Assembly: GCA_021604865.1 (NCBI GenBank)
Contig: BQJU01000035.1
Location: 1 to 64,000, forward strand
Source: Saprospiraceae bacterium
Lineage (GTDB): Bacteria > Bacteroidota > Bacteroidia > Chitinophagales > Saprospiraceae
Direction of reading: 5' to 3'
DNA length: 64,000 nucleotides
In this document: one piece after another, positions 24,751 through 40,126 of the stretch
Numbering within the stretch: position 1 is the first letter of the stretch
How the letters are laid out: every line of letters begins with the position of its first letter
The notes under the pieces: model-generated
The model's database searches: none
What the model saw: the letters and a program-made list of their open reading frames with translations, nothing else
Told to the model about the DNA's origin: nothing
Program-made: the position numbers and the translations under genes

Positions 24751-25833
24751 TCAAATCACCAGATCGAATTGCAATTCTCGCTGTAAATAGTATTCTACAT
24801 TCTCATTGACAATAATGTCGAGTGGCAGGTATTGGATGGGTTCCACTTCTTTTTTGAATAGTAGGTGACCTACGATATTCATGATGCCAAGGTAGCCCTG
24901 CTGAACCGGGTTTTGGTTGATCAGAAAACTGATTTTATTTTGCTGAAGGTATTCCAGGTTAGGCTGGATAAGGTCAAAGCCGACTATTTTAATATTTTTT
25001 AAGGCGGCTGATTCCATACAATTGATCAATTTATAGGCCCGTGAGTTGATTACAAAAATGCCGCGCACATGCTGATGTGTCCTCAATTGTTCCATGATGT
25101 AATTCTTCAACTCCTCTTGTTGGTCAAAATCTTCAAAAGCCGATTTGACGATTTCTATATTTTTGGATGAATTTTGGGTAAAATAATCCCGGAATCCTTG
25201 TTCTTTATTGATGACGTGTTTGGCATTACTGGTTTCCTTTCCCAGGTTCAGGATCATGGCGGCCTCTCCTTCGTTGAGACCAAAGTCAAGCAGTTTACCA
25301 CCCAATACCCCACTATGGTAGGAGTCCTGGCCCACGTAACAAAGGGATTTGACATTGCGGATATCCGTATTGATCATGGCTACCGGAATCTTTCTCCTGG
25401 CACATTCCTCCAATAATTTCATAGATTCTTCTAAAAAGATAGGAGCAAAAAGTATCGCTTCAGGTGGGTCATCTAGAATCTTTTTGACGGCCTTTTTAAA
25501 ACTGATGGTATCAAAAAGATCAAAATAATAAGGTCGGTTAATAATACCGTAATGCTGCACGGCTTGCAGGGCTTTTTCCATCCCTAACTTTGGCTGCTGC
25601 CAATAAACATCCGTTGTAAAGTCTGGTAGCAGGGAATCAATGCGTAGGGTTCGGTTTAAAGCGAGGGTACTGGCTATAATGTTGGGCTCATAATCGAGGT
25701 CTTTCATCACAGCAAGTACTTTTTCTTTGGCTTTCTGGGAAACGTTCCCGCGTTTGTGCAGGACTCGATCAACTGTTCCGGTAGACACTCCAGCCCGTTC
25801 GGCAATGTCTTTTATTCTAATCCGTTTGTTCAT
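24751..25833 (-). CDS. LacI-family transcriptional regulator of the amino-sugar locus
   Basis: The 360-residue protein has an N-terminal LacI helix-turn-helix and hinge (residues 5-60: IKDIAERAGVSTGTVDRVLH, then DYEPNIIAS) and a periplasmic-binding-protein-like sensor domain. It is transcribed away from a ROK kinase/NagB operon. The 167-base spacer contains two LacI-type palindromes 31 bases apart, so it very likely regulates itself and the catabolic genes, with a sugar or sugar phosphate such as GlcNAc-6-P or GlcN-6-P as inducer. The ligand is inference. Confidence 0.9.
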   Translation of the reverse strand: MNKRIRIKDIAERAGVSTGTVDRVLHKRGNVSQKAKEKVLAVMKDLDYEPNIIASTLALNRTLRIDSLLPDFTTDVYWQQPKLGMEKALQAVQHYGIINRPYYFDLFDTISFKKAVKKILDDPPEAILFAPIFLEESMKLLEECARRKIPVAMINTDIRNVKSLCYVGQDSYHSGVLGGKLLDFGLNEGEAAMILNLGKETSNAKHVINKEQGFRDYFTQNSSKNIEIVKSAFEDFDQQEELKNYIMEQLRTHQHVRGIFVINSRAYKLINCMESAALKNIKIVGFDLIQPNLEYLQQNKISFLINQNPVQQGYLGIMNIVGHLLFKKEVEPIQYLPLDIIVNENVEYYLQRELQFDLVI

Positions 25834-25891
25834 TGGAAGGGCTTGATTTTAATTGATTACCAAAATAAGCATAAAAATATAGATATGTTTT

Positions 25892-25934
25892 GTGTGCGTA
25901 CACAAATTAAAAAAAAACAACCGTGTGCGCACAC
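25892..25934. promoter_or_regulatory. tandem LacI-type operators in the divergent promoter region
   Basis: GTGTGCGTACAC at 25892-25903, within the near-palindrome TTTGTGTGCGTACACAAA, and the perfect palindrome GTGTGCGCACAC at 25923-25934 have centres 31 bases apart, about three helical turns. This is the size and symmetry of LacI/GalR operators and suggests cooperative binding or looping. Confidence 0.85.
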
Positions 25935-25952
25935 AGTTTTGGTTTTTTCTTT

Positions 25953-25960
25953 TATATTTG
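25953..25960 (+). promoter_or_regulatory. -7 box (TATATTTG) of the ROK-nagB operon
   Basis: TATATTTG matches the Bacteroidota TAnnTTTG element. The expected -33 position overlaps the second operator at 25923-25934, consistent with repression by blocking polymerase. No good TTG is found at the ideal spacing. Confidence 0.5.
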
Positions 25961-26000
25961 TCTTAAATGATAAATATAGGCGGCTAGTATAGTCGCAAAT

Positions 26001-27011
26001 ATGTGTTCAGTAATAAAATTTCCAAACCAACCAAAGCCGATCATCTTGGAGCTTGCCCTCAGCATTGATATAGGTGGAACAAATACGAAACTTGCCCTGG
26101 TTAATCGCAAGGGAGAATTGATAGCACTTAACCGGATGTCGACTTCAGGTACCAGTGGTACTCAGCCTTATTTCAGAAAACTTTTTCAGGCTATTTCCCA
26201 ATTATTTGCCAATAGAGATACGGCCTTTCAACTGATAGGTATTGGGATAGGCGCTCCAGGAAGTAACGGCCCCAAAGGGACAATTGAATATGCAGCCAAC
26301 CTGCCTTTTAGTGGAAAAGTGGAGATTTGCCGGATTCTTGAGAACGAATACAATGTCCCTGCTTTTTTGATCAAAGATGCCAATGCTGCTGCGTTGGGAG
26401 AAAAGTGTTTTGGCGGGGGTAGAGGCATGCAAAACATCATAACTTTGACACTTGGCACCGGATTGGGTTGTGGGATTATTCTCAACAATCAGGTTGTGTC
26501 GGGAACGGATGGACTGGCTGGTGAATTTGGCCATACGATTGCTATTAAAGATGGGCGCCTCTGCAATTGTGGTCGGAAAGGTTGCCTGGAAACCTATGCT
26601 TCGGCCACCGGACTGAAACGAACCGTTTTACATTTACTGGCCCAAACAAAGGAAAAGAGCACCCTCGCTCGATATACCAGTGACAAATTGGAAGCTAAAA
26701 CCATCTTTGATATGGCAAAAGCCGGAGACTCGCTGGCCAAAACGGCATTTGAATATACAGGCAAGCTTTTAGGTAGCAAAATGGCAGAATTGGCGACGGT
26801 ACTTTGCCCGGAAGCTTTTTTCCTTTCAGGCGGAGTCATTGCAGCTGGAGATTTTATTTTAGAACCTACTATCCACCATTTTAATGCCAACTTATTGCCG
26901 ATTATGCAGGGAAAGATAAACATATTACCCTCCAGTTTGGGCGCTGATAATGCGGCTTTACTGGGGGCAGCTTCTATGGTTTGGGAAAAGGCAAAAATCG
27001 TTCAAATATGA
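26001..27011 (+). CDS. ROK-family sugar kinase (GlcNAc or glucose kinase-like)
   Basis: This 336-residue kinase has the ATP-binding start DIGGTNTKLALV (residues 23-34), GIGIGAPG, the catalytic region FLIKDANAAALGE with the general-base Asp, and LGTGLGCGI. A ROK zinc motif reads GHTIAIKDGRLCNCGRKGCLE, with His and three Cys. It is the first gene of an operon that ends in NagB, so phosphorylation of GlcNAc, ManNAc or glucosamine is likely. It overlaps nagB by ATGA. No other in-frame ATG lies near the N-terminus, so the start at 26001 is used although it adds about 18 residues before the family core. Confidence 0.9.
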   Translation: MCSVIKFPNQPKPIILELALSIDIGGTNTKLALVNRKGELIALNRMSTSGTSGTQPYFRKLFQAISQLFANRDTAFQLIGIGIGAPGSNGPKGTIEYAANLPFSGKVEICRILENEYNVPAFLIKDANAAALGEKCFGGGRGMQNIITLTLGTGLGCGIILNNQVVSGTDGLAGEFGHTIAIKDGRLCNCGRKGCLETYASATGLKRTVLHLLAQTKEKSTLARYTSDKLEAKTIFDMAKAGDSLAKTAFEYTGKLLGSKMAELATVLCPEAFFLSGGVIAAGDFILEPTIHHFNANLLPIMQGKINILPSSLGADNAALLGAASMVWEKAKIVQI

Positions 27012-28951
27012 CCACTTTCAAAACGATAAACATGGATGTATTAAAATATCAACTCAAATCACTGGAAAATATTCCAACTAAAATTTGGGAAGACTCAAAA
27101 GAAGCCTCCAATCACGTAGCTCGGTCGATTGCTTTGGCTATCCGGCAAAAACAGCAGGAGGGAGAAAATATCGTTCTGGGGTTGGCAACTGGGTCTTCGC
27201 CCATTCGCATATATGAGGAACTTGTCAGGTTGCACCGCGAAGAAAAACTCAGTTTTGCCAATGTGATTACATTCAATCTGGATGAATACTATCCCATCGC
27301 TCCTGATGCTCAACAAAGCTATGTCCGGTTTATGAATGAGTATCTCTTCGACCACATTGACATCAACCGGGAAAATGTGCATATCCCGGATGGTACTTTA
27401 CCTTTGGATAAGGTAGAAGCATATTGTAAAAATTACGAGAAAAAAATTGAAGCCCTTGGTGGCATTGATATCCAATTACTGGGTATTGGACGTACCGGGC
27501 ATATTGGTTTTAATGAACCAGGTTCCTGGGAAAGTTCATTGACCCGCCTGGTTCGTCTGGACAATATTACCCGCCAGGATGCACTAAAGGATTTTCCAAG
27601 AGAAGAAGATGTTCCTTATCGGGCCATTACTATGGGTATTGCTACTATTTTGAAGGCGCATACCATTTATCTACTCGCTTGGGGCCAGCATAAATCTGCC
27701 GTGCTGAAAAGGGCCATTGAAGACAATATCACACCAACGGTACCGGCTACCTTTCTACAAAAACATTCCAATACCAGAGTTATTCTGGACAAAGCCGCTG
27801 CCGAGGAACTGACTCGATTCAAGGCACCCTGGACGGTAGGCATGTGCAACTGGAACGAAGATTTAATCTGCAAAGCAGTCGTTTGGCTTTCACGAAAAAT
27901 GAATAAACCCATCCTCAAGTTGACGGATGAAGACTATGGGGAGAACGGCCTAAGTGATCTGACCGTAGAATATGCTTCTGCATACAGCATCAATATTATG
28001 GTGTTCAATCGCTTGCAACACACTATTACCGGTTGGCCGGGTGGCAAACCCAATGCCGATGATACGACTCGCCCGGAAAGGGCTAAACCGGCCAAAAAAC
28101 GGGTCATTATATTTAGCCCCCATCCCGATGATGATGTCATCTCTATGGGGGGGACTTTCCAACGTCTGGTGCAGCAAGGCCACGAAGTGCATGTAGCTTA
28201 CCAGACTTCCGGTAATATTGCTGTTCACGATTATGATGCCCGACGTTATGTAGAATACCTGAAGGAGTTTATCGAGCTGGAGGGAGAAGAAGATGATCTG
28301 AAATCTTTGAGTAAAAAACATGATAAGGTCATCCGGTTTCTGAATAGCAAAGAAACCAATGAATCGGACATTCCGGAATTGAGACGTATCAAAGGGTTGA
28401 TCCGTAGGGGCGAAGCCAGAGCCGGAGCCCGTTTTTGTGGCCTTACAGATGATCGCATTCATTTTTTGGATATGCCCTTCTACGAAACGGGTAGAACCCG
28501 TAAAAAACCAATTAGCAAACAGGATATTAAGGTGATTGCCAATTTATTGGAAATCATCAAGCCACACCAGGTATACGCTGCTGGTGATCTGGCTGACCCC
28601 CATGGAACTCATCGGGTTTGTCTGGAGGCCATTTTTCAGGCGATGGGCCAATTGAAAGAAAAAGACTGGATGAAAGATTGCTGGATGTGGTTGTATCGGG
28701 GAGCATGGCACGAATGGAGTGTGGATGAAATCGAAATGGCTGTGCCGCTAAGTCCGGTGGAGTTGGCCAAAAAACGCAAAGCCATTTACATGCACCAATC
28801 ACAAAAAGACCGTCCTCCTTTTCCCGGCAATGATGAGCGAGAATTCTGGAAACGTGCAGAAGACCGCAACCGGGAAACGGCAAACATATACCGCCAACTC
28901 GGCCTGGCTGAGTACGAAGCAATGGAGGCCTTTGTACGGTGGAAGTTTTAA
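27008..28951 (+). CDS. nagB: glucosamine-6-phosphate deaminase fused to a PIG-L (LmbE-like) domain
   Basis: The 647-residue fusion starts with a NagB domain (about 15-270), which converts glucosamine-6-phosphate to fructose-6-phosphate and ammonia. FNLDEYYP places the catalytic Asp-Glu pair at 92-93, followed by GIGRTGHIGFNEPGS. A second domain from about 360 is PIG-L/LmbE-like, with zinc motif HPDDD at 372-376 and a later HGTH. PIG-L enzymes deacetylate GlcNAc-containing compounds, so the fusion could couple deacetylation to deamination. Long NagB proteins of this design are known in Bacteroidota; the role of the second domain is not settled. The ATG at 27008 overlaps the ROK stop (ATGA) and is preferred to the upstream frame. 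Confidence 0.93.
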   Translation: MTTFKTINMDVLKYQLKSLENIPTKIWEDSKEASNHVARSIALAIRQKQQEGENIVLGLATGSSPIRIYEELVRLHREEKLSFANVITFNLDEYYPIAPDAQQSYVRFMNEYLFDHIDINRENVHIPDGTLPLDKVEAYCKNYEKKIEALGGIDIQLLGIGRTGHIGFNEPGSWESSLTRLVRLDNITRQDALKDFPREEDVPYRAITMGIATILKAHTIYLLAWGQHKSAVLKRAIEDNITPTVPATFLQKHSNTRVILDKAAAEELTRFKAPWTVGMCNWNEDLICKAVVWLSRKMNKPILKLTDEDYGENGLSDLTVEYASAYSINIMVFNRLQHTITGWPGGKPNADDTTRPERAKPAKKRVIIFSPHPDDDVISMGGTFQRLVQQGHEVHVAYQTSGNIAVHDYDARRYVEYLKEFIELEGEEDDLKSLSKKHDKVIRFLNSKETNESDIPELRRIKGLIRRGEARAGARFCGLTDDRIHFLDMPFYETGRTRKKPISKQDIKVIANLLEIIKPHQVYAAGDLADPHGTHRVCLEAIFQAMGQLKEKDWMKDCWMWLYRGAWHEWSVDEIEMAVPLSPVELAKKRKAIYMHQSQKDRPPFPGNDEREFWKRAEDRNRETANIYRQLGLAEYEAMEAFVRWKF

Positions 28952-29123
28952 GTTTCATACATATTTGTGAGAGGGTTCTAGGAAAACAACCGCAGTAATT
29001 GGTGCTTTTAAACTGGTAAAACCTAACCATTGAGAAGGAAATAACAATCAATTAATCTCGGCTAGTTGCACTAGTGCCTTCTTTTTTCAATTGTCTTAGA
29101 GCATACTCTTTAACCTTTACCCA

Positions 29124-31415
29124 ATGAGAAATTTAGCATTATTTACCCTTATAGGTCTATTGATGTTTGCTTGCGAATCAGATCAACCCTCTTCGGAAAC
29201 GCCATTGGCTGTAGATTTTCTCATTCCAAAACCCAATACAGTAGAAATAGGTAGCGGTTATTTTGCATTACCCTCCGAAGCACAAATCAGCAGTGGAGAA
29301 TTGGGAGAAGACTGGCAATCTACCCTGCAGTTCTGGGCAGATGTTTTTAGTGAAGAATCTAAATCAACATGGAAAGTAGGAGGCCAAGACAATGCTGCAA
29401 TTGTTGTAGAAAAATCAACAGCTTTATCCTCTCCAGAAGCTTATTTTTTGGAGATCAATCCACAACAAATCCGCATACAAGCTAGCGAGGCAGCTGGCGT
29501 TTATTATGCATTTCAGACGCTTCGTCAACTTATTTGGGCGAACGAAGGTCACATACCGGTGGTGAAGATTTCCGACAGTCCACGTTTTGCTTACCGGGGC
29601 ATGCACCTCGATGTAGGCCGGCATTTCTTTCCGGTTGACTTTATCAAAAAATACATCGATTTATTGGCGACTTATAAAATGAATCGGTTTCATTGGCACC
29701 TGACGGAAGACCAGGGCTGGAGAATTGAGATCAAACAATACCCTAAACTACAGGAAATTGCTGCGTACCGCAAAGAGACCTTAATTGGACATTATAACGA
29801 TCAACCACAAACTTATGATGGACAACGCTACGGCGGCTTTTACACTCAGGAGGAAGTTAAGGAGGTAGTGGCCTATGCAGCCAAACAATTTGTAACCATC
29901 ATACCAGAAATAGAACTGCCCGGCCATGCACAGGCAGCCTTGGCGGCCTACCCCGAACTATCTTGTACCGGTGGCCCCATCGAAGCAGCAACCAAATGGG
30001 GCGTATTTGAAGAAGTCTATTGTCCCAAAGAGAATACTTTTACTTTTCTTGAAAATGTATTGACTGAGGTCATGGCTTTATTTCCTAGTGCGTATGTCCA
30101 TATAGGCGGGGATGAATGCCCGAAAACCCGCTGGGAAGAATGCACCGAATGTCAGGCCTTAATGATAAAAGAAGGCTTAGAGGATGAACATGCTTTGCAA
30201 AGTTATTTCATTCGCAGGATTGAAAAATTCCTCAATGCCAATGGTCGACAGATTATTGGTTGGGATGAGATTTTAGAAGGTGGGCTTGCGCCAAATGCTA
30301 CCGTTATGTCCTGGCGTGGTGAAGAGGGAGGCATTGCAGCTGCCAAACAAGGTCACAATGTCATCATGACTCCTACCACTTATTGTTATTTTGATTATTA
30401 TCAATCACAAGACCCGGGTGAACCATTGGCTATTGGTGGGTTTTTGCCATTGGAAAAAGTATATAACTACGAGCCCATTCCGGCAGAGTTATCCGCAGAA
30501 GAAGCCAAATATATTCTTGGAGCTCAAGGCAATGTATGGACCGAATATCTGAGTACTCCTGGGGCCGTAGAGTATATGGCTTACCCACGAGCTATAGCTT
30601 TGGCGGAAGTCGTTTGGTCTGCAAAAGAGGATCGCAATTTCAAAGGTTTCACCAAGAGATTAAACCCACACCTGAGACACCTCAAAGCTGAAGGCGTCAA
30701 TACCGCTAATCACTTGCTGGATGTCGAACCAGAAATAATAAGTGGCGATGGTGAGGGCATAAAAGTGAAGTTGAGCACCCCTCTGGAGGGCAGTGAGATT
30801 CGCTACACCCTGGATGGTAAAACACCGGATGTAAATAGTGCTTTGTACCAGCAACCGGTCTCGGTGGAAGGCACCCTACAATTGAATGCCCAGGCATTTG
30901 ATCAAGGTAAAGCAAGCGGTCGGCCTGCGAAAATTCAATTTCAGGCACACCTGGCAGCGGGCAAAAAAATTAGTCTGGAACATCAGCCACATCCCAAATA
31001 CAATGCCGGTGGGATAGGGGCTTTGATTAATGGCGTAAATGGAGCAGATGAACGTTACGGCGATGCAGAATGGCTGGGGTTTTCGGGAAAAGATCTGATA
31101 GCCAATATTGATCTAGAAACCAGTCAGGAGCTTGAGTCTATCTCTTTCCGGTTTTTTAATGGCCCTGGGCAATGGATTTATTTGCCACAAAAGGTGGAAG
31201 TTTCCACTTCTGAAGATGGAACAACTTTTAACTTGGCAAACAGCCAAAATATAAATACCTTCAACGAAGAAAAAGTGGTCAATGTAAAGGTGCCGATAAA
31301 AAGTAAAGGCCGTTATTTGAAGGTGCATGTCTACAATTTAGGACGGATTCCTGAAGGGAATGTAGGTGCGGGAAATGCGCCTTGGTTGTTTGTAGATGAA
31401 ATGGTGGTAAAATAA
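29124..31415 (+). CDS. GH20 beta-N-acetylhexosaminidase lipoprotein
   Basis: This is a 763-residue enzyme with lipobox LMFAC at the end of its signal peptide, so it is probably on the outer membrane or surface. An N-terminal GH20b domain (about 30-150) precedes the GH20 barrel (about 155-500) with the catalytic Asp-Glu pair D330-E331 in HIGGDECPKTRW. C-terminal parts are a chitobiase-like immunoglobulin domain (about 540-610, IRYTLDGKTP) and an F5/8-like carbohydrate-binding region (to 763). It releases terminal GlcNAc or GalNAc from chitin oligomers or glycans. Position between NagB and a symporter fits GlcNAc catabolism. Confidence 0.93.
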   Translation: MRNLALFTLIGLLMFACESDQPSSETPLAVDFLIPKPNTVEIGSGYFALPSEAQISSGELGEDWQSTLQFWADVFSEESKSTWKVGGQDNAAIVVEKSTALSSPEAYFLEINPQQIRIQASEAAGVYYAFQTLRQLIWANEGHIPVVKISDSPRFAYRGMHLDVGRHFFPVDFIKKYIDLLATYKMNRFHWHLTEDQGWRIEIKQYPKLQEIAAYRKETLIGHYNDQPQTYDGQRYGGFYTQEEVKEVVAYAAKQFVTIIPEIELPGHAQAALAAYPELSCTGGPIEAATKWGVFEEVYCPKENTFTFLENVLTEVMALFPSAYVHIGGDECPKTRWEECTECQALMIKEGLEDEHALQSYFIRRIEKFLNANGRQIIGWDEILEGGLAPNATVMSWRGEEGGIAAAKQGHNVIMTPTTYCYFDYYQSQDPGEPLAIGGFLPLEKVYNYEPIPAELSAEEAKYILGAQGNVWTEYLSTPGAVEYMAYPRAIALAEVVWSAKEDRNFKGFTKRLNPHLRHLKAEGVNTANHLLDVEPEIISGDGEGIKVKLSTPLEGSEIRYTLDGKTPDVNSALYQQPVSVEGTLQLNAQAFDQGKASGRPAKIQFQAHLAAGKKISLEHQPHPKYNAGGIGALINGVNGADERYGDAEWLGFSGKDLIANIDLETSQELESISFRFFNGPGQWIYLPQKVEVSTSEDGTTFNLANSQNINTFNEEKVVNVKVPIKSKGRYLKVHVYNLGRIPEGNVGAGNAPWLFVDEMVVK

Positions 31416-31489
31416 CGTCGGGGTGACCGTTGTGGCCGCTTAATGACAAGCACCTAATGATGCTGTAGTGATAGAACGATGAATCGGAT

Positions 31490-31506
31490 GGCCTCGAAAC
31501 ATGCTC
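31490..31506. repeat. variant copy of the CCTCCAAACATGC repeat
   Basis: GGCCTCGAAACATGCTC differs from the dispersed core by one base and lies in the hexosaminidase-symporter spacer. Confidence 0.35.
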
Positions 31507-31544
31507 TAAACCCATAATAAGAAAAATACTAAAACAGAACGAAA

Positions 31545-33314
31545 ATGACACTTACTACCCTTGACTGGTCGATCGTGGCCGTTTATTTTCTACTCGTTTT
31601 GATTGTAGGCCTGATGGTATCCAAAAAGGCCGGATCAAGTGTTTCCGAGTTTTTTCTTTCTGGTCGTAATATGCCCTGGTGGCTTTTGGGGGTATCTATG
31701 GTTGCGACTACTTTTTCAGCGGATACGCCCAACCTGGTAACCGGGTTGGTACGAGAAGATGGGGTTGCAGGTAACTGGGCATGGTGGGCCTTTTTGTTGA
31801 CCGGCATGCTGACCGTATTTGTGTATGCCAAGTTGTGGCGCCGGTCAATGGTTTTGACGGATGTAGAATTTTATGAACTTCGATATAGTGGCCAGGCCGC
31901 TGCCTTTTTACGAGGCTTCCGGGCGCTTTATCTGGGGTTAATTTTTAATGTGGTGGTTATGGGCGCCGTTTCTCTGGCAGCGATTAAATTTGGAGAGATC
32001 GTCCTCGGCATGCCTGGTTGGTTGACATTGCTGATTGCCGGCTCTATCACCATTGCTTATAGTGCTTTTGGTGGATTAAAGGCAGTAGTGATTACTGACT
32101 TTGTGCAGTTTATCCTGGCCATGATAGGATCCATTTGGGCTTGTTGGTATTTGATCAATTTAGAAGAAGTTGGTGGTTTGTCTACATTATTGGAACACAA
32201 AAATGTGTTGGATAAAACGGCTTTGTTGCCTGACTTTTCTAATCCTTCTATATGGGTGCCAGTGTTGATGGTACCACTGGCAGTACAATGGTGGGCTTCA
32301 TATTATCCAGGAGCAGAGCCTGGTGGCGGTGGCTATATTGCACAGCGTATGTTTTCTGCCAAAGATGAAAAAAATGCCATTGGGGCCACGCTTTTATTCA
32401 ATATTGCTCATTATGCATTGCGGCCATGGCCTTGGATTTTGATCGCCTTGGCTTCCCTGGTTATTTTTCCAGAACTAGCTGATATACAATCGGTTTTCCC
32501 CAACCTTTCCGAAGATAAGCTGGGCCATGATGTGGCCTATCCGGCTATGTTGACTTTGTTGCCACCCGGTTTGTTAGGATTAGTTGCCGCCTCGTTGATT
32601 GCTGCGTTTATGTCAACTATTTCCACTCAGCTAAATCTTGGCGCTTCCTATCTGGTCAATGATTTTTATCAGCGTTTTATCAAGCCTGATGCCACTCAAA
32701 AACAGCTGGTAAGGGCTGCACAGTTGTTTACCGTTATCTCGGCCATTATGGGCTTAGGATTAGGTTTATTGCTGACGGATGCCGGTCAGGCCTTTCGTCT
32801 GTTGTTGTTGTTGGGTGCGGGTACAGGGCTGATCTATATTTTGCGCTGGTTTTGGTGGCGCATAAGTGCTGCTACGGAAATAATCGCGATGATTGCCTCC
32901 TTGTTGATTGCGGGTTATTTTACCTTTTTTCAGCATACTTTTGAATCCTGGCAAACTATTGTAATCGGAGCCGGATTGACGACTTTTATCTGGATTGTCG
33001 CTACTTTCCTGACGCCTCCAACAGATGATGCAACCTTGCGTAATTTTTATCGAAAGATCAAGCCGGGAGGCCCAGGTTGGGATGCCGTCATTGCTAAAGC
33101 GCATGCAGAAGGCGATATGATTCAAAAAGAGACCGGGCAACTGCCGTTGGAAATTCTTTGTGTACTCATCGGAAGTATTACCGTTTTTGCCGTATTATTT
33201 GCCACGGGCAATTGGGTTTATGGAAATGCGTCCCTGGCTGGCATGTTGACTCTTGCTAGTGTATGTGGTGCCGCGTTCCTGTTTTGGGCCTGGGGGAAAT
33301 TGAGGACGGAGTAG
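31545..33314 (+). CDS. sodium:solute symporter (SSS/SLC5 family)
   Basis: The 589-residue inner-membrane protein has about 13 hydrophobic helices. Helix 1 begins at DWSIVAVYFLLVLIVGLMV, followed by the family signature FFLSGRNMPWWLLGVSMVATTFSADTP. It probably imports a sugar or amino sugar with sodium. Downstream of a GH20 enzyme and NagB, GlcNAc or chitooligosaccharide is the natural guess, but SSS substrates cannot be read from sequence. The stop at 33314 lies inside the first copy of a 67-base direct repeat. Confidence 0.9.
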   Translation: MTLTTLDWSIVAVYFLLVLIVGLMVSKKAGSSVSEFFLSGRNMPWWLLGVSMVATTFSADTPNLVTGLVREDGVAGNWAWWAFLLTGMLTVFVYAKLWRRSMVLTDVEFYELRYSGQAAAFLRGFRALYLGLIFNVVVMGAVSLAAIKFGEIVLGMPGWLTLLIAGSITIAYSAFGGLKAVVITDFVQFILAMIGSIWACWYLINLEEVGGLSTLLEHKNVLDKTALLPDFSNPSIWVPVLMVPLAVQWWASYYPGAEPGGGGYIAQRMFSAKDEKNAIGATLLFNIAHYALRPWPWILIALASLVIFPELADIQSVFPNLSEDKLGHDVAYPAMLTLLPPGLLGLVAASLIAAFMSTISTQLNLGASYLVNDFYQRFIKPDATQKQLVRAAQLFTVISAIMGLGLGLLLTDAGQAFRLLLLLGAGTGLIYILRWFWWRISAATEIIAMIASLLIAGYFTFFQHTFESWQTIVIGAGLTTFIWIVATFLTPPTDDATLRNFYRKIKPGGPGWDAVIAKAHAEGDMIQKETGQLPLEILCVLIGSITVFAVLFATGNWVYGNASLAGMLTLASVCGAAFLFWAWGKLRTE

Positions 33315-33487
33315 GTTTAGGGAGGTTTAGGAGGGTAACGGTGGTTTAAAACGGAGCTGGTCTTTGCAACCTTTGCATTTATTCCAATCCATACATGGGA
33401 AGTAGGTTTAGAGAGGTTGAGTAGGTTTAGGAAGGTTTAGGAGGGGAGCGGCGGTTTAGAACGGAGCTGGTTTTTGCAACCTTTGCA
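33311..33487. repeat. two 67-base direct repeats
   Basis: The units at 33311-33377 and 33421-33487 have equal length and differ at about six positions; both run from GTAGGTTTAGG to CAACCTTTGCA. Each unit contains shorter AGGTTTAGG direct repeats. The first covers the stop codon of the symporter gene. Confidence 0.85.
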
Positions 33488-33858
33488 AAAATGAAAAATC
33501 ATCCATCGGTTTCCCCAATTTCTACAAGTCAAAAATATTCGTTTCTGTGGCTAAATGTTAAAGTTGAGCGATAGCTATCATCTTTTTGAGTTTTGGTCAA
33601 CCCAAATGCTTTTCTGAGTTGTTAATATTTTGTAATTTGATACTTTGATAATGAAAAATTAAGTTTTGTAAAAGGATTAAAAAAATTATTATTATTTTTG
33701 AAATCTAAAAACCAAATTTTACATACACTTTTCCGTTAAGGAGAAAGTGAGTATAACACAAATGGCCTCTACCTGACGACCAACAAAACATTAGGTAGAA
33801 TGGATGAAAACTATTTACCACTAATTGCCTAATTATTTCAAACAAAACCGCGGTAGAT
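33315..33858. other. intergenic region after the symporter
   Basis: It contains most of the two 67-base direct repeats, then AT-rich DNA. TTTTG at 33664-33668 and TATTTTTG at 33693-33700 form a possible promoter with a 24-base gap, slightly longer than usual, pointing to the small gene at 33859. Confidence 0.4.
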
Positions 33859-34096: not shown

Positions 34097-34144
34097 TTTG
34101 GCGTGTATCCTATTTGGTGATCATCAAATAGGATGCACGCCAAA
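34097..34144. terminator. very long hairpin after the small basic gene
   Basis: TTTGGCGTGTATCCTATTTG (34097-34116) pairs with CAAATAGGATGCACGCCAAA (34125-34144), 20-base arms with one mismatch and an eight-base loop. There is no T run, so termination is only one possible role; it may instead be a mobile palindromic repeat. Confidence 0.5.
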
Positions 34145-34571: not shown

Positions 34572-34931
34572 TAAGTACTGAAAAAATTAGCAAAATGAGA
34601 GGGTTGATGCTAAAAGTCTCATCACTAAACAGTTAGAAAGCTTTTGTGTTTAAATGTTTGGTGTAAACTGTTTCACGTAAATGACTTCAATCTTAAGTAG
34701 AAATTGTGTTTAATACTAAAACTGTTTCAAATTTAGGCAAAATGCATGGGTTAGCTTTGCTCATCTGATATTTGGTGCACTACGGGAAAATTTAGGAGAG
34801 AGGTAGGAATAGCGATGTTTCGCAGAGGTGTTTTTGTTGCTACTCATCTCACTCATTGATGGAGAGTAGGTAAACTAGGAAAGAAAAGAGGTGGTATGGC
34901 AGACATGATGCCTGCCATACCAATACTTCAA

Positions 34932-35828
34932 TTATTGCTTGGTGAAAAGCAATAAGGTCTCGGGTTCCTGATCCACAAAAATATGGAGTAAATATTTGCC
35001 AGTATGCAAATCGGAAAGCTGAAGTTGGGTTTTGTTTACCCCCGCTTTTGCATGGACTGTTTTTATTTTTCGACCCATAAAGTCATAAACTTCCAGGATC
35101 GCAGATTGTTTGACTTCGTTTGGAAATTGTACTTGTAGCTGATCTCTGGCCGGGTTTGGATACAAGCTTATCGACCCATAACTACCTTCAGATTGAATAG
35201 AAAATGTTTGATTTTCCACATCACTATTGCTGTTATAGATAGTTGCTCCTGTTTGATTGTCTTCATTATTTAAAAATAGTGACCCGAGGAAGTATTGAAG
35301 TGTATTAACCTGTCCAGGTGTATTTCCAAGGGGTAATGACCAAATAAAGTCTAACAATTGGGTACCTGTACCAATTAATTCCAGGGAGGTCCAGGGAAGC
35401 AATTGAGTTCCGATATGGTTGGAAGTCAAACCAGCAGCAGGACCTTCTATTGCTGAAATAATTGTAGGAAACAAAAATAAAGTTCCAGAATTGCCGTAGC
35501 TGGAAAATGAGGAGACATCACCATTGGGTTTCACAAGAGCGACACCGTTGCTGGATCTGAATTGTTCTACATCAAACCAGATAGAGCCATAACCATTCTG
35601 TTGGTCGGGTATTGAGGTTGCGTTTGCCTCTTTTGTATGCGTGACTCTTCCATTTTTATCATACAAAACCATAGACCATCCATCGAGGTTTTCTCCGGCC
35701 TCTCCAGCAATTTCCGCGCCGGGAGTAGTGCTAGAAAGATAATTGACTTCATTAAGGAAGACATTCTGTGCATAGGAGGTGTTGAATTGCAGGATGACAG
35801 CAAAAAAAAGGAGTAGTAAATTTTTCAT
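34932..35828 (-). CDS. T9SS-secreted protein, lamin-tail-like domain, paralogue 1
   Basis: This is a 298-residue protein with a signal peptide (1-20, ending SYAQ) and a C-terminal type A T9SS sorting domain (about 222-298: SLYPNPARDQLQVQF, DFMGRKI, GKYLLHIF). It is therefore exported across the outer membrane and released or surface-anchored. The N-terminal part (NVFLNEVNY, LDGWSMVLYD, YGSIWFDVEQFRSS, VALV) resembles a lamin-tail domain. A paralogue with the same block order lies at 38762-39649, and both start at a TTCGCCATG context. The pair flanks two uncharacterised genes. No enzymatic motif is seen. Confidence 0.85.
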   Translation of the reverse strand: MKNLLLLFFAVILQFNTSYAQNVFLNEVNYLSSTTPGAEIAGEAGENLDGWSMVLYDKNGRVTHTKEANATSIPDQQNGYGSIWFDVEQFRSSNGVALVKPNGDVSSFSSYGNSGTLFLFPTIISAIEGPAAGLTSNHIGTQLLPWTSLELIGTGTQLLDFIWSLPLGNTPGQVNTLQYFLGSLFLNNEDNQTGATIYNSNSDVENQTFSIQSEGSYGSISLYPNPARDQLQVQFPNEVKQSAILEVYDFMGRKIKTVHAKAGVNKTQLQLSDLHTGKYLLHIFVDQEPETLLLFTKQ

Positions 35829-35939
35829 GGCGAAAAAATTTTTCAGATAATTAAAATATTCCTAAATGTAAGTTTTAGTAGAATGGGTAAGTGAAATTCT
35901 TGAAAAGAAGCGTTTTAGTATGAAGTCTGGACCAAAATA

Positions 35940-37475
35940 CTAATTATTATTTAATAATTCAACAGGTACTGGGATTTTATAATATTGAATGATTTCGATT
36001 AATAAATTTCGGGTGCTATAAAGGATTGTATTGTTTTGTGTTTCTTTCAAAATGGAGCTTAGTTTGTTAAGGTATTGTTTACGGGAGGTTTCCAACCATT
36101 TAGAAAGATAATAAAAACCGTGTAATGATAGGTCATTTTCTTGGTTGACCACTTTATCCTTGATTGATTTTTTGTATCGCCGGTAAAATTTTTCTACCCG
36201 ATCATAAGCTTTGAGGCAAAAAGCGCCCATAATCATTACAGAATATATGGCATCCAAATAGGCATAAAAAGAAACCTGCTGATAAAAAATCAATAGATTT
36301 TCTAGTGTTTGGATACCTTCCTCAATGTCTTTCCTATCCCCCAGCAGTAACAGGCCCGCATAAATTGTGGTAAGATTGATATAACGGAGGATAAATTTTT
36401 CCTCTAACATCTTGTTCTTGAGTATAATCTCGCTGCGTTGTCTTAGAAAGGACAGTTGTTGATGAACCTCTTCGGATAAATTTTGCAAATGATCATCCCT
36501 GTAACTGGTGAAGTGATTGGAAACGTAATAACTACATTGAATGGCTATGGAGTTAATTTCAGGAAGGTTGACAAAACTATTCCAAAAAAGATCATTTTTA
36601 CTTTCTTTGATCAGTTCGGATGCTGCTAGGAGAATTTCTTGCTGAGACAACTCTTTGATAGAATAATTTAACTTCAGGAAGGTCAACTTTTGCCATAAAT
36701 TATACAGATAAGGAATGGTGATATACTCATTTTTTAATAATTCCTCCTCGATAGCTTTGAGTTCCTCCAAAACCTCTTTTTGATAAAAGCGATTATCCCG
36801 GTAAAGGTATAGGGTAAAACAGGCATTCAGGCGGCTCATATTTCTGACTACAAAACTCCCACTTTGCTGAAAGGGTTTTAAAAACGCCAGCATTTGATTA
36901 ACGCTATTTTCATCACTGTCTTTGTCCTTATCTTTGAGTTTTTGGTAAACGAAATAGTTAATGTCATTAAGTTCCTGTTTATATTTTAATAACTCTCCGA
37001 TACGTTCGTAATACACCAGAGCTTGTTTGCTTGACTCCAGCAGCAATTCTCTTTGCGACAAAATGTTTAAAATCTTAATTTCAGCATCAATGGCTTCTAC
37101 TTTTTCAGCAACATCTTGTAGCATTTTAGCTAATTTGGTTGCCCTCCCCAATTGGCCTGTATTAATTTGATGTTGAACCAGTATTATATTCGGTTCCAGG
37201 TACTCTGGATAATTTTTGGCTAGATAACTGGTAAGTTTGAAGGTATGATGTGCTAACTGGAAAAATTTTTTCATTTCCTTTTCACCGGTGGGTGTTTCCC
37301 CATAGACCATTTTATACAGTTGTTCGGAATCCTGCACTATATCAACATCCCGATCAATGACATCAATCAAAGCCAGTGGGTAATATGACCTCACACTGAT
37401 ATTTTTAACGTATTCTCGAAAAATATCAAAGTGAAAATCGTCAAGGAGTTTCACAACTTTTTCTATCAATAACAT
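35940..37475 (-). CDS. large all-helical hypothetical protein
   Basis: The 511-residue protein has no signal peptide or membrane helix. It consists of successive amphipathic helices resembling TPR-like solenoid repeats (for example ILNILSQRELLLESSKQALVYY and LLLGDRKDIEEGIQTLENLL). I do not recognise the family. It is AT-rich with many Lys, Asn and Ile codons, unlike the housekeeping genes nearby, which hints at horizontal origin. It is the middle gene of a minus-strand island between two T9SS-secreted paralogues, downstream of an Imm26-like gene. Confidence 0.75.
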   Translation of the reverse strand: MLLIEKVVKLLDDFHFDIFREYVKNISVRSYYPLALIDVIDRDVDIVQDSEQLYKMVYGETPTGEKEMKKFFQLAHHTFKLTSYLAKNYPEYLEPNIILVQHQINTGQLGRATKLAKMLQDVAEKVEAIDAEIKILNILSQRELLLESSKQALVYYERIGELLKYKQELNDINYFVYQKLKDKDKDSDENSVNQMLAFLKPFQQSGSFVVRNMSRLNACFTLYLYRDNRFYQKEVLEELKAIEEELLKNEYITIPYLYNLWQKLTFLKLNYSIKELSQQEILLAASELIKESKNDLFWNSFVNLPEINSIAIQCSYYVSNHFTSYRDDHLQNLSEEVHQQLSFLRQRSEIILKNKMLEEKFILRYINLTTIYAGLLLLGDRKDIEEGIQTLENLLIFYQQVSFYAYLDAIYSVMIMGAFCLKAYDRVEKFYRRYKKSIKDKVVNQENDLSLHGFYYLSKWLETSRKQYLNKLSSILKETQNNTILYSTRNLLIEIIQYYKIPVPVELLNNN

Positions 37476-37649
37476 GGCGCTGCAATATAACCAGGAAGAA
37501 TCCCTGTATATTAACTAGTTCAGTTTATAGAATATCCTATGGATGGCACAAGATACTATTTCTCGCCAAACTAATTTTCCAATTCTCCACCGAACAGCTT
37601 GTAGCAAGCTATTGTCAACAGATTTTGAGCTGATTATTTAAGAGCCTGT

Positions 37650-38330
37650 TTAAAAACTAAGCGCTGCAGCTAGACAAAGTGCTACACTAGGAATATGCTT
37701 GATAGCAGGTAACTCTTTTGTGGGAATAACCTTATTCCGATATTCAATTGGGATATTGGAATAAAAAGGCATTTGAATGGCTTGGTGATAATCTTCCAAT
37801 GTTGCCTTGTTTTCTTCCTCGTAATAATAATTTTCAATTTTTTCACCTGATTTTCGCAAAAATTCCATCGTTGTCCGATTGATAATACTTTGAGTAGTTA
37901 CCAATTGTAATGTTTCAAGGTGGGCAAGTTGGTTATACTGGCAGCTTGTCCCTTTTTTAGAAAAGTTGTAGATCGGGCACCAATTTTTCGTTGCAAATTT
38001 TGACGATTTATTTTGAGAAGATGATTCCTTTTCAATTTTATAGACAGGACATACACTATCATCTGCCCGGCTGAGTTTTCCAATGATTTTCCATTTGCAT
38101 TGGTCATTCAAACTAGGAAACCATCCCAGCGTTAATGGATTTAAAAGATATTCAACATCCTGTAACACCTTGACATCCTGGATGGGTTTTTCAGATTTGA
38201 AATCATATATTTTTATGACAAGGCCATACCAGGGATCCAAAGAAGTAAAATCTAACAGTTTACAGTATCCATAACCTAACCCCATATCAAGTTGGTATTG
38301 TAAAACTGAACGATGTTGAACATTATTCAT
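37650..38330 (-). CDS. hypothetical protein with Imm26-like N-terminal domain
   Basis: This is a 226-residue cytoplasmic protein. Residues 8-90 show the order of features I associate with immunity protein 26: a GYGYCKLLDF strand, LVIKIYDFKSEKP, and KWKIIGKL. Imm26 proteins protect cells from polymorphic toxins. The rest (about 90-226) is cysteine-containing (CPVYK, WCPIY, SCQYN) and of no known family, with AALEDY-like charged helices. The match is by eye and weak; a stand-alone hypothetical protein is the alternative. The gene is AT-rich and may share a transcript with the 511-residue gene that follows it after 174 bases. Confidence 0.6.
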   Translation of the reverse strand: MNNVQHRSVLQYQLDMGLGYGYCKLLDFTSLDPWYGLVIKIYDFKSEKPIQDVKVLQDVEYLLNPLTLGWFPSLNDQCKWKIIGKLSRADDSVCPVYKIEKESSSQNKSSKFATKNWCPIYNFSKKGTSCQYNQLAHLETLQLVTTQSIINRTTMEFLRKSGEKIENYYYEEENKATLEDYHQAIQMPFYSNIPIEYRNKVIPTKELPAIKHIPSVALCLAAALSF

Positions 38331-38360
38331 AAGGTCGGGACTTTTGATTTTTGAATGAAT

Positions 38361-38393
38361 AAAAAAGTGCCTGCGTCAGCAACCCAGGCACTT
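38361..38393 (-). terminator. rho-independent terminator, minus strand, orphan
   Basis: AAGTGCCTG (38365-38373) pairs with CAGGCACTT (38385-38393); on the minus strand the hairpin is followed by a T run (A run at 38361-38366). Confidence 0.8.
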
Positions 38394-38602
38394 AGCTTAG
38401 TACAAATGAAATATCTTTTGTATTGGGGGAATATTTCTGGGTTGAAAAAGGAAGAAAAGGCACTGAATTTTTGAAAACTCATGCCAATTCCTCCGCATCG
38501 CCATGTAATCTTTTCAGCACACAAGTATTTGTATGTGCTATTGCAAATATGGATGATTCTGATACCAATCTTCCTTCTATCTGATAAATGGAATACTATG
38601 GG

Positions 38603-38644
38603 AAAAAAAGACAGGCCCTATCTAAATTCTTAGATAGGACCTGT
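38603..38644 (-). terminator. rho-independent terminator of the upstream T9SS gene
   Basis: ACAGGCCCTATCTAA (38611-38625) pairs with TTAGATAGGACCTGT (38630-38644) with one mismatch, and the minus strand continues into seven T (A run 38603-38609). Confidence 0.85.
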
Positions 38645-38676
38645 ATATGCCTAAAACCCAATTCCGGTGTTTCAGT

Positions 38677-38735
38677 GTATGTTTGGAGGTCAAACTTTGG
38701 ACTACAAAGCATCAAATCCGACCTCCAAACAAGCA
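38677..38735. repeat. inverted pair of the GTTTGGAGGTC repeat
   Basis: GTTTGGAGGTC (38681-38691) and its exact reverse complement GACCTCCAAAC (38720-38730) are separated by 28 bases. This is the best preserved copy of the family in the window. Confidence 0.75.
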
Positions 38736-38761
38736 CTCAGAGCAAAAGCTTTTCCGAAACT

Positions 38762-39649
38762 TTATTGTTTGGAGAAAATTATTGAGTTATTGGGCTTTTG
38801 ATCCGTTAAAATATTGAGGAGGTATTGACCTTCCGGCAAATCGAAAAGTTGCAATTGCGTAGTTTCTATGCCTGCTTGTACCTGTGTGGTCTGGATTTTT
38901 CTACCCATGAAGTCGAAAATCTCCAAGATGGATGGCGCTTCAGCGCTCCCTAGAAATTGAACTTGAAGCAAATCATTAGCTGGGTTAGGGTACACCTTGA
39001 TAGTCGTATTATTTTGACCATTTATTATTGGAGTCTCAATATCGGTACTGCCCTTGAAGCTCGCTTTGCCAGGAATATTAGGGGCACTGCTTAATGGAGA
39101 TGGTGTGGAGAAATATTGAGAGGTATTTGTTTGCCCAGGAGTGCTGCCAGAGGGTAATGACCAGACAAAATCCGAGCCTTGACTCCCTGTACCAGTTAAT
39201 TCCAGTGAGGTGCCGGAAAGTGATTGCGTACCAATATTGACAGAAGTCAGTCCATCAGCAGGTCCTTCTGTTGCCGTAATTATGATGGTGGTCGAAGAGA
39301 AAGGTAGGTTATCACCATAGCTGAAGAATGAAATAACATTATCTGAGGGGTCTACCAGCGCAACCCCACTACTAGATCTGGATTGCTCAACATCAAACCA
39401 AATAGAGCCATACCCATTATCTTGGTTGGGTATAGAGATTGAGCCTACGGTTTCTGTATTTGTAACACTTCCGTTCTCATGATAAAAAACCATAGACCAT
39501 CCGTCAAGATCAATATTAGCTTTTCCTGTGATTTCTACGCCCTGGTCGTCAGGGTCGGAGGCCTTATAGTTGACTTCATTGATGAAAACTTGCGCAGATA
39601 CATTAAAGAATGTACCCATTACCAATAGAATGAATAAAAACTGTTTCAT
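38762..39649 (-). CDS. T9SS-secreted protein, lamin-tail-like domain, paralogue 2
   Basis: This is a 295-residue paralogue of the protein at 34932-35828. The shared blocks in order are NEVNY, LDGWSMV, NGYGSIWFDVEQ, GVALV, EGPA-GLTS, LEL-GTG, WSLP-G-TPGQ, YPNPA-D-LQVQF and DFMGRKIQT. It has a signal peptide (ending NVSAQ) and a C-terminal T9SS sorting domain (about 215-295). The ATG at 39649 is chosen because it starts the signal peptide; an upstream extension to 39694 is possible but unlikely. A terminator follows at 38603-38644. The function is unknown; adhesion or matrix roles are common for such cargo. Confidence 0.85.
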   Translation of the reverse strand: MKQFLFILLVMGTFFNVSAQVFINEVNYKASDPDDQGVEITGKANIDLDGWSMVFYHENGSVTNTETVGSISIPNQDNGYGSIWFDVEQSRSSSGVALVDPSDNVISFFSYGDNLPFSSTTIIITATEGPADGLTSVNIGTQSLSGTSLELTGTGSQGSDFVWSLPSGSTPGQTNTSQYFSTPSPLSSAPNIPGKASFKGSTDIETPIINGQNNTTIKVYPNPANDLLQVQFLGSAEAPSILEIFDFMGRKIQTTQVQAGIETTQLQLFDLPEGQYLLNILTDQKPNNSIIFSKQ

Positions 39650-40126
39650 GGCGAATGAATTTAAGTTATGATGAAATATTAATAAAAGAGTCACAGGTAA
39701 GTGCAGGTTGGGCTAGAAATACATAAATGTTAGCGATTGGAAGTAATGTACTAACTAATATTTAATAAAACAATATGTATTTTGAAGTTAACAGTGGATT
39801 TATTCAATAGCTTATTTTTTTTCCCATACTTCACCGTACATCAGATAAGCCTCCATTTTGAAGTTGAGTGCCCCATATTTGTAGCAGGAACAATGGTTCC
39901 TAAAATTTAGTATGGAGTATTAAATAATAAGGTTGTGGTATGGATTCCTGAATAGGAGAAATGCCACAACTTTTTTTTGCGTTGGACTATTCTAACTGAT
40001 ATTTCCTGCCTTATGTTATCCTCATCAATGGCATCAACTCTAGCCAATTACCATTATTTATAATTCCCTATCTTGTAGACGTATATTGATTGGCTCTAAG
40101 ACTAATACAACAACTCAGAGTAGGTT
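39650..40126. other. divergent spacer upstream of the MFS transporter
   Basis: It contains a two-hairpin element ending in a plus-strand terminator (39886-39978), about 150 bases before the transporter ATG. AGCCAAT (40042-40048) and ATTGGCT (40089-40095) form a spaced inverted repeat that may be an operator. No protein gene is supported. Confidence 0.4.
39886..39978 (+). ncRNA. candidate attenuator leader or small RNA with terminator
   Basis: A first hairpin AGGAAC-aatg-GTTCCT (39886-39901) precedes a long stem GTTGTGGTAT (39932-39941) with ATGCCACAAC (39961-39970), followed by eight T at 39971-39978. No plus-strand gene lies upstream, since the neighbour is on the minus strand. Either it ends a small RNA or it attenuates transcription into the sugar transporter at 40127. 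Confidence 0.4.

What the first reader, a model, noticed from the sequence alone, without database searches (positions are those of the whole stretch)
34932..39649. Two paralogous T9SS-secreted proteins enclose an all-helical protein and an Imm26-like protein
Directly seen: four minus-strand genes, the outer two sharing at least nine ordered blocks and T9SS sorting domains, the inner two AT-rich and without close recognised families. The inner 226-residue protein has a weak Imm26-like pattern (immunity against polymorphic toxins). A secreted pair beside an immunity-like gene could be a contact or defence module delivered by T9SS, but no toxin domain is seen in the secreted pair, so this is speculative. 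Repeats and orphan terminators on both sides support an accessory island.
Basis: partly seen in the sequence, partly recalled or inferred. Interest (0 to 1): 0.62.

Follow-up and report, generated by a model that had tools for sequence, protein, structure and literature searches.

The report
Helical-repeat protein paired with secreted protein
The four genes are mainly a conserved, undescribed pair (an internal helical-repeat protein plus an exported surface-type protein) whose exported gene has been duplicated, with a stray immunity-type gene in between; it looks more like a control unit for secreted proteins than a weapon.

Summary
The four genes are real, but the grouping is misread. The core is a pair: F0 (511 aa, 35940-37475), all-helical, no Pfam family, followed by F1 (298 aa, 34932-35828), a small T9SS-exported protein. 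F1 is directly behind F0, same strand, in 15 of the first 19 of 53 listed F0 loci, nearby in 2, and in none of the other 34, of which 7 lack downstream sequence. In 11 of 17 named F1 loci, T9SS metallopeptidases lie within 7 kb. F0's model (pLDDT 91.7) holds a TPR-like superhelix; re-aligned solved matches are led by the pheromone receptor NprR (Z 17.9), though Foldseek alone is weak. Here F1 is duplicated (sister copies, 100/100). The 226-aa gene passes Pfam's Imm26 cut-off, but is a singleton with the lowest GC3, no toxin beside it and no counterpart near other F0 genes. A toxin-immunity module is not supported. Most likely F0 is a cytosolic TPR regulator for linked secreted proteins, built like NprR; that function is inferred, and neither propeptide gene nor HTH was found.

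The parts
35940..37475 (-). F0: 511-aa all-helical protein. Residues 61-110 are the best conserved stretch, 1-60 and 401-480 next; residues 162-511 (about 35943-36992) form a TPR-like superhelix
   Evidence: ORF; no Pfam match over cut-off, no NCBIfam match; model pLDDT 91.7, pTM 0.83; fold matches; conservation
34932..35828 (-). F1: 298-aa T9SS-type protein (hydrophobic leader, beta module, linker, type A sorting domain at residues 222-285, about 34974-35165); partner of F0
   Evidence: Por_Secre_tail 52.8 bits against cut-off 27; 111 nt behind F0, same strand; same order in 15 of 53 named loci
38762..39649 (-). F1': second, sister copy of F1 (295 aa; sorting domain residues 215-295, about 38765-39007; weak LTD-like match residues 18-112, about 39314-39598)
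   Evidence: sister of the other window copy, 100/100 support; model; C-terminal fold = T9SS CTD, mirolase CTD Z 12.4
37650..38330 (-). 226-aa Imm26-family protein (Imm26 domain residues 9-99, 38034-38306)
   Evidence: PF15428 32.3 bits, cut-off 23.3; GC3 0.308 against 0.438 +/- 0.033; no relatives by direct search
39749..39779 (-). possible remnant of an F0 3' end upstream of F1' (matches 35938-35968; it ends 99 nt before F1', the original 109 nt before F1)
   Evidence: local alignment score 32, reached by 4 of 500 random sequences (200-nt test) and 5 of 300 (whole-gap test); same pair as repeat D3
35829..35939 (-). F0-F1 gap of 111 nt; several relatives carry a TACTTTTG-like element here, so F1 may also have its own promoter
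   Evidence: gap lengths; sequences; read by eye, -7 consensus recalled, not scored

Best explanation
Shown: the core is a conserved two-gene unit of a Saprospiraceae-type group of Bacteroidota. F0 encodes a helical protein without a database family whose C-terminal two thirds are predicted to form a TPR-like superhelix. F1, directly behind it, encodes a small protein with a T9SS sorting domain. Large T9SS metallopeptidases (mostly M36 and M4) often lie beside the pair. In this genome F1 was duplicated, and an Imm26-family gene lies between F1' and F0. Inferred: the duplication was of the F0-F1 unit with loss of one F0, and the Imm26 gene arrived later. F0 stays in the cytosol (no leader seen by eye) and works like the TPR receptors of the NprR/Rap kind: its superhelix binds a peptide or protein ligand, and the conserved N-terminal part passes this on to control the linked exported proteins. 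F1 is the exported partner, a surface-bound or released binding module. The Imm26 protein is an orphan immunity gene, perhaps against Rhs-type toxins of its own or rival cells, and is not part of the unit.
For: F1 directly downstream of F0, same strand, in 15 of 53 named loci (15 of L050-L068, plus 2 nearby; 0 of the other 34, 7 of which have no downstream ORF held) and in the window. In a draw of 248 same-family genomes, own included, 24 had a profile hit; 22 were kept (2 weak partial hits dropped), and F1 is directly behind F0 in 14 of the 20 with enough flank (own included), nearby in 2, not in the stretch held in 4 (the two sets overlap in genomes). The F0-F1 gap is mostly 70-170 nt although the F1 proteins are only 27-53% identical to F1'. 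T9SS tail in 19 of 19 F1 members. Of 20 neighbour peptidases from 11 of 17 named F1 loci, 14 match M36, 5 M4, 1 M43, and 19 carry the T9SS tail (2 of the 22 members of these clusters, in L085 and L088, were not scanned). Fold: NprR 4gpk Z 17.9 over 300 residues, RapH 15.9 over 271; 18 of 50 listed rows are RRNPP or AimR receptors (several entries of the same receptor); best other row, LGN, 15.4. NprR precedent: nprR is upstream of the neutral protease gene nprA and followed by the gene of the secreted NprX (PMC4147580, passages). Nearly invariant polar residues Q399, Q400, D408, R433, K436, N447, Q467, K471 in the last repeats. Imm26; Rhs cores in this genome.
Against: Foldseek E-values are weak (none at or below 0.001; best 3.2e-3, to a Ctr9/Paf1 complex; NprR rank 12 at 0.018), and TPR superhelices resemble each other: the tool puts the typical best Z of helical models without a clear match at 14. 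No HTH or other known domain was found in residues 1-110. No conserved small propeptide gene was found next to F0 (crude scan). F0 occurs without F1 in the more distant loci and in 4 of 20 family genomes. Away from L050-L068, F0's neighbours are not clearly richer in T9SS tails: 5 of 56 against 3 of 70 genes further off. No metallopeptidase lies within 7 kb of the pair in this window. No expression, binding or localisation data exist. The remnant match is short and random sequences reach it at about 1%.
Confidence: 0.4

Rival explanations
1. F0 is a cytosolic chaperone or adaptor that holds F1 (and other T9SS cargo) before Sec export, not a regulator.
For: Tight one-to-one adjacency with a T9SS cargo gene; TPR superhelices commonly bind proteins (rows); T9SS peptidases nearby.
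Against: In the 34 more distant loci no F1 lies beside F0 (7 of them lack downstream sequence), and neighbours there carry the T9SS tail in 5 of 56 cases against 3 of 70 genes further off (3 edge ORFs left out). T9SS cargo reach the periplasm by Sec without known dedicated chaperones (recalled).
Confidence: 0.2
2. F0 and F1 are only long-standing neighbours with no functional tie; ordinary conserved synteny in one group.
For: The linkage is limited to one group; gene order elsewhere differs. F1 seems to have its own promoter-like element in several relatives (by eye).
Against: Adjacency, order and strand hold among F1 proteins only 27-53% identical to F1', while other neighbours change.
Confidence: 0.25
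3. One reading: a T9SS-delivered contact or defence module with an immunity gene.
For: Imm26 over the curated cut-off; the outer proteins carry T9SS sorting domains; T9SS-linked antibacterial toxins have been proposed in Bacteroidetes (TANFOR proteins, PMC7073777, passages).
Against: F1' is accounted for by a leader, one beta module, a linker and a sorting domain; no toxin domain was found in either copy. No Imm26-like gene was found beside F0 elsewhere. Imm26 is listed with the Tox-URI1 nuclease (PMC3482391, passages), which no Pfam match in the four proteins suggests. No TANFOR match in this genome (control silent, so weak).
Confidence: 0.07
4. The unit is surface matrix or adhesion machinery: F1 is a small adhesin working with the M36/M4 peptidases, and F0 an unrelated housekeeping TPR protein.
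For: F1-like modules recur, also in tandem, in very large predicted ORFs of relatives (1482-1832 codons); peptidase neighbours.
Against: Does not explain why F0 is the closest conserved partner of F1.
Confidence: 0.08

Closest known systems
RRNPP peptide-pheromone receptors (NprR, Rap, PlcR, PrgX, Rgg) and AimR
   Same: predicted TPR superhelix of similar size; a secreted product encoded directly behind; secreted metallopeptidases as neighbours in relatives, as NprR with NprX and NprA
   Different: Bacteroidota, not Bacillota; no HTH found; the partner is a T9SS protein of about 270-380 aa, not a 10-100-aa propeptide; no sequence match found
T9SS type A cargo proteins (Por_Secre_tail, TIGR04183)
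   Same: F1 and F1' end in a sorting domain; the F1' model matches the C-terminal domains of mirolase, PorU, PorZ and the NucA-bound GldL complex entry
   Different: F1 is a minimal cargo: one small module and a linker
Imm26 immunity family (PF15428)
   Same: 226-aa protein over the curated cut-off; aligns over most of its length, at 15-24% identity, with four Imm26 proteins of 153-171 aa
   Different: longer C-terminal part; no toxin beside it; singleton
Lamin tail domain proteins of bacteria (e.g. ExeM)
   Same: weak match of F1' residues 18-112; secreted
   Different: below the curated cut-off; no nuclease or phosphoesterase domain found

Membership tests
T9SS type A cargo | C-terminal sorting domain over the curated cut-off | tested here: met
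   52.8 and 44.1 bits against 27; 19 of 19 family members match at E<=0.01; CTD fold Z 12.4 to mirolase CTD
T9SS type A cargo | N-terminal Sec signal peptide | tested here: inconclusive
   hydrophobic leader in the rows, by eye; no signal-peptide predictor at hand
Imm26 (PF15428) | profile match over the gathering score | tested here: met
   32.3 against 23.3 bits. My own model from four other Imm26 rows ranks it second of 733 ORFs at E 0.035, behind an ORF of L066, so does not confirm it
Imm26 (PF15428) | encoded beside a cognate toxin | tested here: not met
   neighbours are F0 and F1'; no toxin domain found. An Imm26 gene of another genome, L108, does follow an Rhs-like C-terminus (by eye)
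Polymorphic toxin-immunity system | toxin domain at the C-terminus of the secreted protein | tested here: not met
   F1 and F1' end in the sorting domain itself
RRNPP receptors | TPR superhelix that binds a peptide | tested here: inconclusive
   superhelix predicted and closest to NprR after re-alignment; binding not testable; no Pfam TPR match for the window protein, one of 8 relatives weakly matches TPR_MalT at E 0.019
RRNPP receptors | adjacent 10-100-aa secreted propeptide gene | tested here: not met
   138 small same-strand ORFs around F0 in the window and 19 loci, 15 signal-like by a crude rule; none of these similar between loci
RRNPP receptors | N-terminal HTH (all but Rap) | tested here: inconclusive
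   no HTH among Pfam matches of 24 N-terminal parts and no PDB sequence match below E 0.43; that part not folded or searched alone
RRNPP receptors | receptor of 250-500 aa | tested here: inconclusive
   511 aa here, about 480-545 in relatives not cut by contig ends; limit from PMC10075063
Lamin tail domain (PF00932) | profile match over the gathering score | tested here: not met
   24-25 against 34.3 bits for F1', none for F1; 1 of 19 at E<=0.01
Known anti-phage defence proteins (PADLOC) | convincing profile match | tested here: not met
   one weak match in 4 proteins: LmuB E 0.013, 12.5 bits, on the 226-aa protein

The most novel reading that the evidence does not exclude
F0 is a Bacteroidota counterpart of NprR: a cytosolic TPR receptor that reads a peptide, possibly made from exported or extracellularly cleaved protein, and switches on a linked T9SS programme (F1 plus M36/M4 peptidases). 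This would be a peptide-sensing circuit whose built-in partner is a T9SS surface protein instead of a propeptide.
Probability: 0.12. Interest if true: 0.8.

Novelty: new variant of a known kind. Interest (0 to 1): 0.42.

Why it matters
Full-text searches of the held library for 'Saprospiraceae' + 'type IX secretion' + 'tetratricopeptide', for 'lamin tail domain' + 'type IX secretion', and for 'quorum sensing' + 'peptide' + 'Bacteroidota' + 'tetratricopeptide' + 'Rap' found no paper. 'RRNPP' + 'Bacteroidetes' gave four papers; the one read in passages treats these systems in Firmicutes and viruses. A conserved TPR protein tied to a T9SS cargo gene, often beside T9SS proteases, would be a handle on how Saprospiraceae, many of them predators or degraders (recalled), control surface proteins and exoproteases. 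It is testable in named strains that carry the same pair (L056, Flavilitoribacter nigricans; L059, Lewinella cohaerens).

Tried and rejected
Island by composition: the helical gene has lower GC than its neighbours in 49 of 49 loci without lower GC3 on average, so this is no evidence for it; kept only for the Imm26-like gene.

Relatives of the 226-aa protein: 59 other related genomes, the named genome collection, plasmids and phages gave none. PF15428 itself rings in 2 of 60 related and 9 of 395 phylum genomes, own genome included in both.

Repeat of the 177-nt gap 37476-37652 elsewhere in the genome (possible insertion-element end): only itself.

T9SS enrichment near F0 outside L050-L068: 5 of 56 neighbours (3 edge ORFs left out) against 3 of 70 genes three or more places away, drawn from 208; no clear enrichment.

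F0 profile against PDB sequences: 4 hits, best E 0.048; N-terminal profile: best E 0.43. The NprR/Rap likeness is fold only. In the VIA list for F1', 48 of 50 rows align from residue 205 on, i.e. to the sorting domain, so the N-terminal beta module is barely tested by fold; the N-terminal part of F0 is likewise barely tested.

LTD name: kept only as a weak resemblance.

Inverted repeat 38578-38609 / 39816-39847 (78%) flanking F1': left as chance, not tested.

Count choices: for GC3 I used 32 of the 44 ORFs (the rest mostly overlapping or short), 28 of them background. In one search, 2 of 24 hits (E 3.5e-5 and 8.9e-4, partial) were dropped as likely generic repeats. In alignment A3, 48 of 53 named loci were used (5 truncated ones left out). 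ORF families come from my own ORF caller (80 aa or more, overlaps removed), not from annotation; start codons of eight F1 rows were chosen by hand.

I also corrected F1 identities to 27-53%, added the loci without downstream sequence, the second random control, and the GC3 of F0 and F1.
Full report
Observation. The four ORFs are present on the minus strand as described. I call them, in order of transcription, F1' (38762-39649), the Imm26-like gene (37650-38330), F0 (35940-37475) and F1 (34932-35828). F1 and F1' are paralogues with T9SS sorting domains over the curated cut-offs. The Imm26-like gene passes Pfam's Imm26 gathering score (32.3 against 23.3 bits). F0 matches no Pfam family over cut-off and no NCBIfam family at E<=10.

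The conserved unit. F0 is single-copy in this genome. A profile scan of named genomes gave 53 loci, all with titles of Bacteroidota groups. In the first 19 of the list, L050-L068 (38-59% identical to F0), F1 is the next gene behind F0 on the same strand in 15, lies nearby in another arrangement in 2 (L054, L062), and was not found in 2 (L065, L068). In the other 34 loci no F1 was found beside F0, but 7 of these have no ORF held downstream. In a draw of 248 genomes of the same family, own included, 24 had a hit. I dropped two weak partial hits. Of the other 22 genomes, 14 (own included) have F1 directly behind F0, 2 have it nearby, 4 do not have it in the stretch held, and 2 are cut by contig ends. 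The two sets overlap in genomes. The gap is mostly 70-170 nt, yet the F1 proteins are only 27-53% identical to F1'.

Neighbours of the pair. In 11 of the 17 named loci with F1, large proteins of two groups lie within 7 kb. Of the 20 from these loci, 14 match peptidase M36, 5 M4 and 1 M43, and 19 carry the T9SS tail. A third family, whose L050 member matches DUF4382, is seen in five loci. The window has none of the peptidase groups nearby; its flanks are a sodium:solute symporter, a sugar transporter and a beta-lactamase-fold protein.

What happened in this genome. The two F1 copies are sisters with 100/100 support in a 19-row tree, so among the rows compared the second copy is particular to this lineage. 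Upstream of F1' a 31-nt stretch (39749-39779) matches the 3' end of F0 and two bases behind it, at nearly the same distance from the start codon (99 against 109 nt). Random sequences of like dinucleotide make-up reach the score in 4 of 500 (200-nt test) and 5 of 300 (whole-gap test) cases. This suggests that the F0-F1 pair was duplicated and one F0 lost; it is an inference from a short match. The Imm26-like gene between F1' and F0 has the lowest GC3 of the 32 genes compared (0.308; background 0.438 +/- 0.033, n = 28); F0 (0.373) and F1 (0.361) are about 2 SD low as well. It has no relatives by direct search in 59 other related genomes, the named genomes, plasmids or phages. No other Imm26-like gene was found among the ORFs of the 53 related loci (733 ORFs with the window's). 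It looks acquired. The low overall GC of F0 is not a sign of transfer: it is below its neighbours in 49 of 49 loci, while its GC3 is on average 0.011 above them.

F1. The F1' model (pLDDT 79.0, pTM 0.56) has a leader helix, a beta module (about 22-164), a low-confidence linker (184-213) and a C-terminal Ig-like domain. The last is the T9SS sorting domain: mirolase CTD Z 12.4, NucA-bound GldL complex entry 11.5, PorU 10.4, PorZ 9.9. The N-terminal module is LTD-like only weakly. Similar modules recur, sometimes in tandem, in very large predicted ORFs of relatives. No toxin domain was found.

F0. The model is all-helical and confident (pLDDT 91.7, pTM 0.83, 49 sequences). Among solved structures the best re-aligned matches are peptide-pheromone receptors: NprR Z 17.9 (300 residues, rmsd 4.7), RapH 15.9. 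Of the 50 listed rows 18 are RRNPP or AimR receptors (several entries of the same receptor), and the best other row, LGN, has 15.4. Foldseek alone is weaker: no match at E<=0.001, and NprR is rank 12. The tool states that helical models without a clear match typically reach a best Z of 14, so the likeness is suggestive, not proof. Residues 61-110 are the best conserved stretch, followed by 1-60 and 401-480; polar residues in the last repeats (Q399, Q400, R433, K436, N447, K471) are nearly invariant, as expected if they hold a ligand or partner.

Mechanism. In Bacillus, nprR lies upstream of the neutral protease gene nprA and is followed by nprX, whose secreted peptide binds the NprR TPR domain (PMC4147580, passages read; that NprA is an M4 enzyme is recalled). 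F0 has a similar predicted superhelix, is followed by a secreted-protein gene and in relatives often neighbours M4 or M36 peptidases. I therefore propose that F0 is a cytosolic ligand-sensing TPR regulator of linked T9SS proteins. Shown: synteny, T9SS tails, predicted fold. Inferred: cytosolic location, ligand, regulation. It is not filed as an RRNPP member: no adjacent conserved propeptide gene was found in a crude scan, no HTH was found, and the partner is a full protein. Against a general tie to T9SS: in the more distant loci 5 of 56 neighbours carry the T9SS tail, against 3 of 70 genes further away.

Imm26 gene. Imm26 is listed as a candidate immunity family linked to Tox-URI1 and found in poly-immunity loci (PMC3482391, passages). 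This genome has nine matches to the Rhs core, so an orphan immunity gene against Rhs-type toxins is plausible. In another genome an Imm26 gene directly follows an ORF with an Rhs-like C-terminal stretch (L108, by eye). The TANFOR polymorphic toxins, proposed T9SS cargo (PMC7073777, passages), were not found here, but the control genomes were silent too.

Verdict. The toxin-immunity reading is mostly not supported. The interesting part is the conserved F0-F1 unit, for which the searches made in the held library gave no description.

Noticed in passing
34932-35828 and 38762-39649; F1 starts in L050, L052, L054-L058, L060: F1 start codons are preceded by GCC (TCGCCATG in 9) in 10 of 19 family members against 4 of 131 other ATG starts in the same loci (Fisher 6e-8, relatedness ignored, eight starts chosen by hand). 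F0 of the window, L052 and L055 share it. Possible shared translational control.
   Followed up: partly
L070, L072, L098, L100, L102: In other Bacteroidota the F0 gene neighbours a conserved 464-555-aa protein on the opposite strand (F7); the L070 member matches a PETase-like hydrolase, and six of 56 distant-locus neighbours match PETase-like models.
   Followed up: no
33309-33509: Imperfect 91-nt direct repeat (82%) with GTAGGTTTAGG-like units, at the end of and behind the symporter gene.
   Followed up: no
34097-34144, 34893-34921, 38367-38397, 38610-38648, 38674-38737: Hairpins between the genes; some look like terminators of F1 and F1', others have no obvious gene (first and last, the others by eye).
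   Followed up: no
G000 contigs C18, C28, C32, C34, C103, C133 (L138-L146): Nine Rhs-core matches in the same genome, pairs of them in short ORFs on C28, C32 and C34, as in displaced toxin-tip cassettes.
   Followed up: partly
24751-33314: LacI-type regulator, ROK kinase, GH20 hexosaminidase and symporter: looks like an amino-sugar utilisation cluster beside the finding.
   Followed up: no
L078, L093, L101 (one genome); L090, L094 (one genome): Some distant Bacteroidota carry two or three F0 relatives, not all in the same neighbourhood.
   Followed up: no
L013, L014, L015: F1-like modules recur, also in tandem, in predicted ORFs of 1482-1832 codons of relatives.
   Followed up: no
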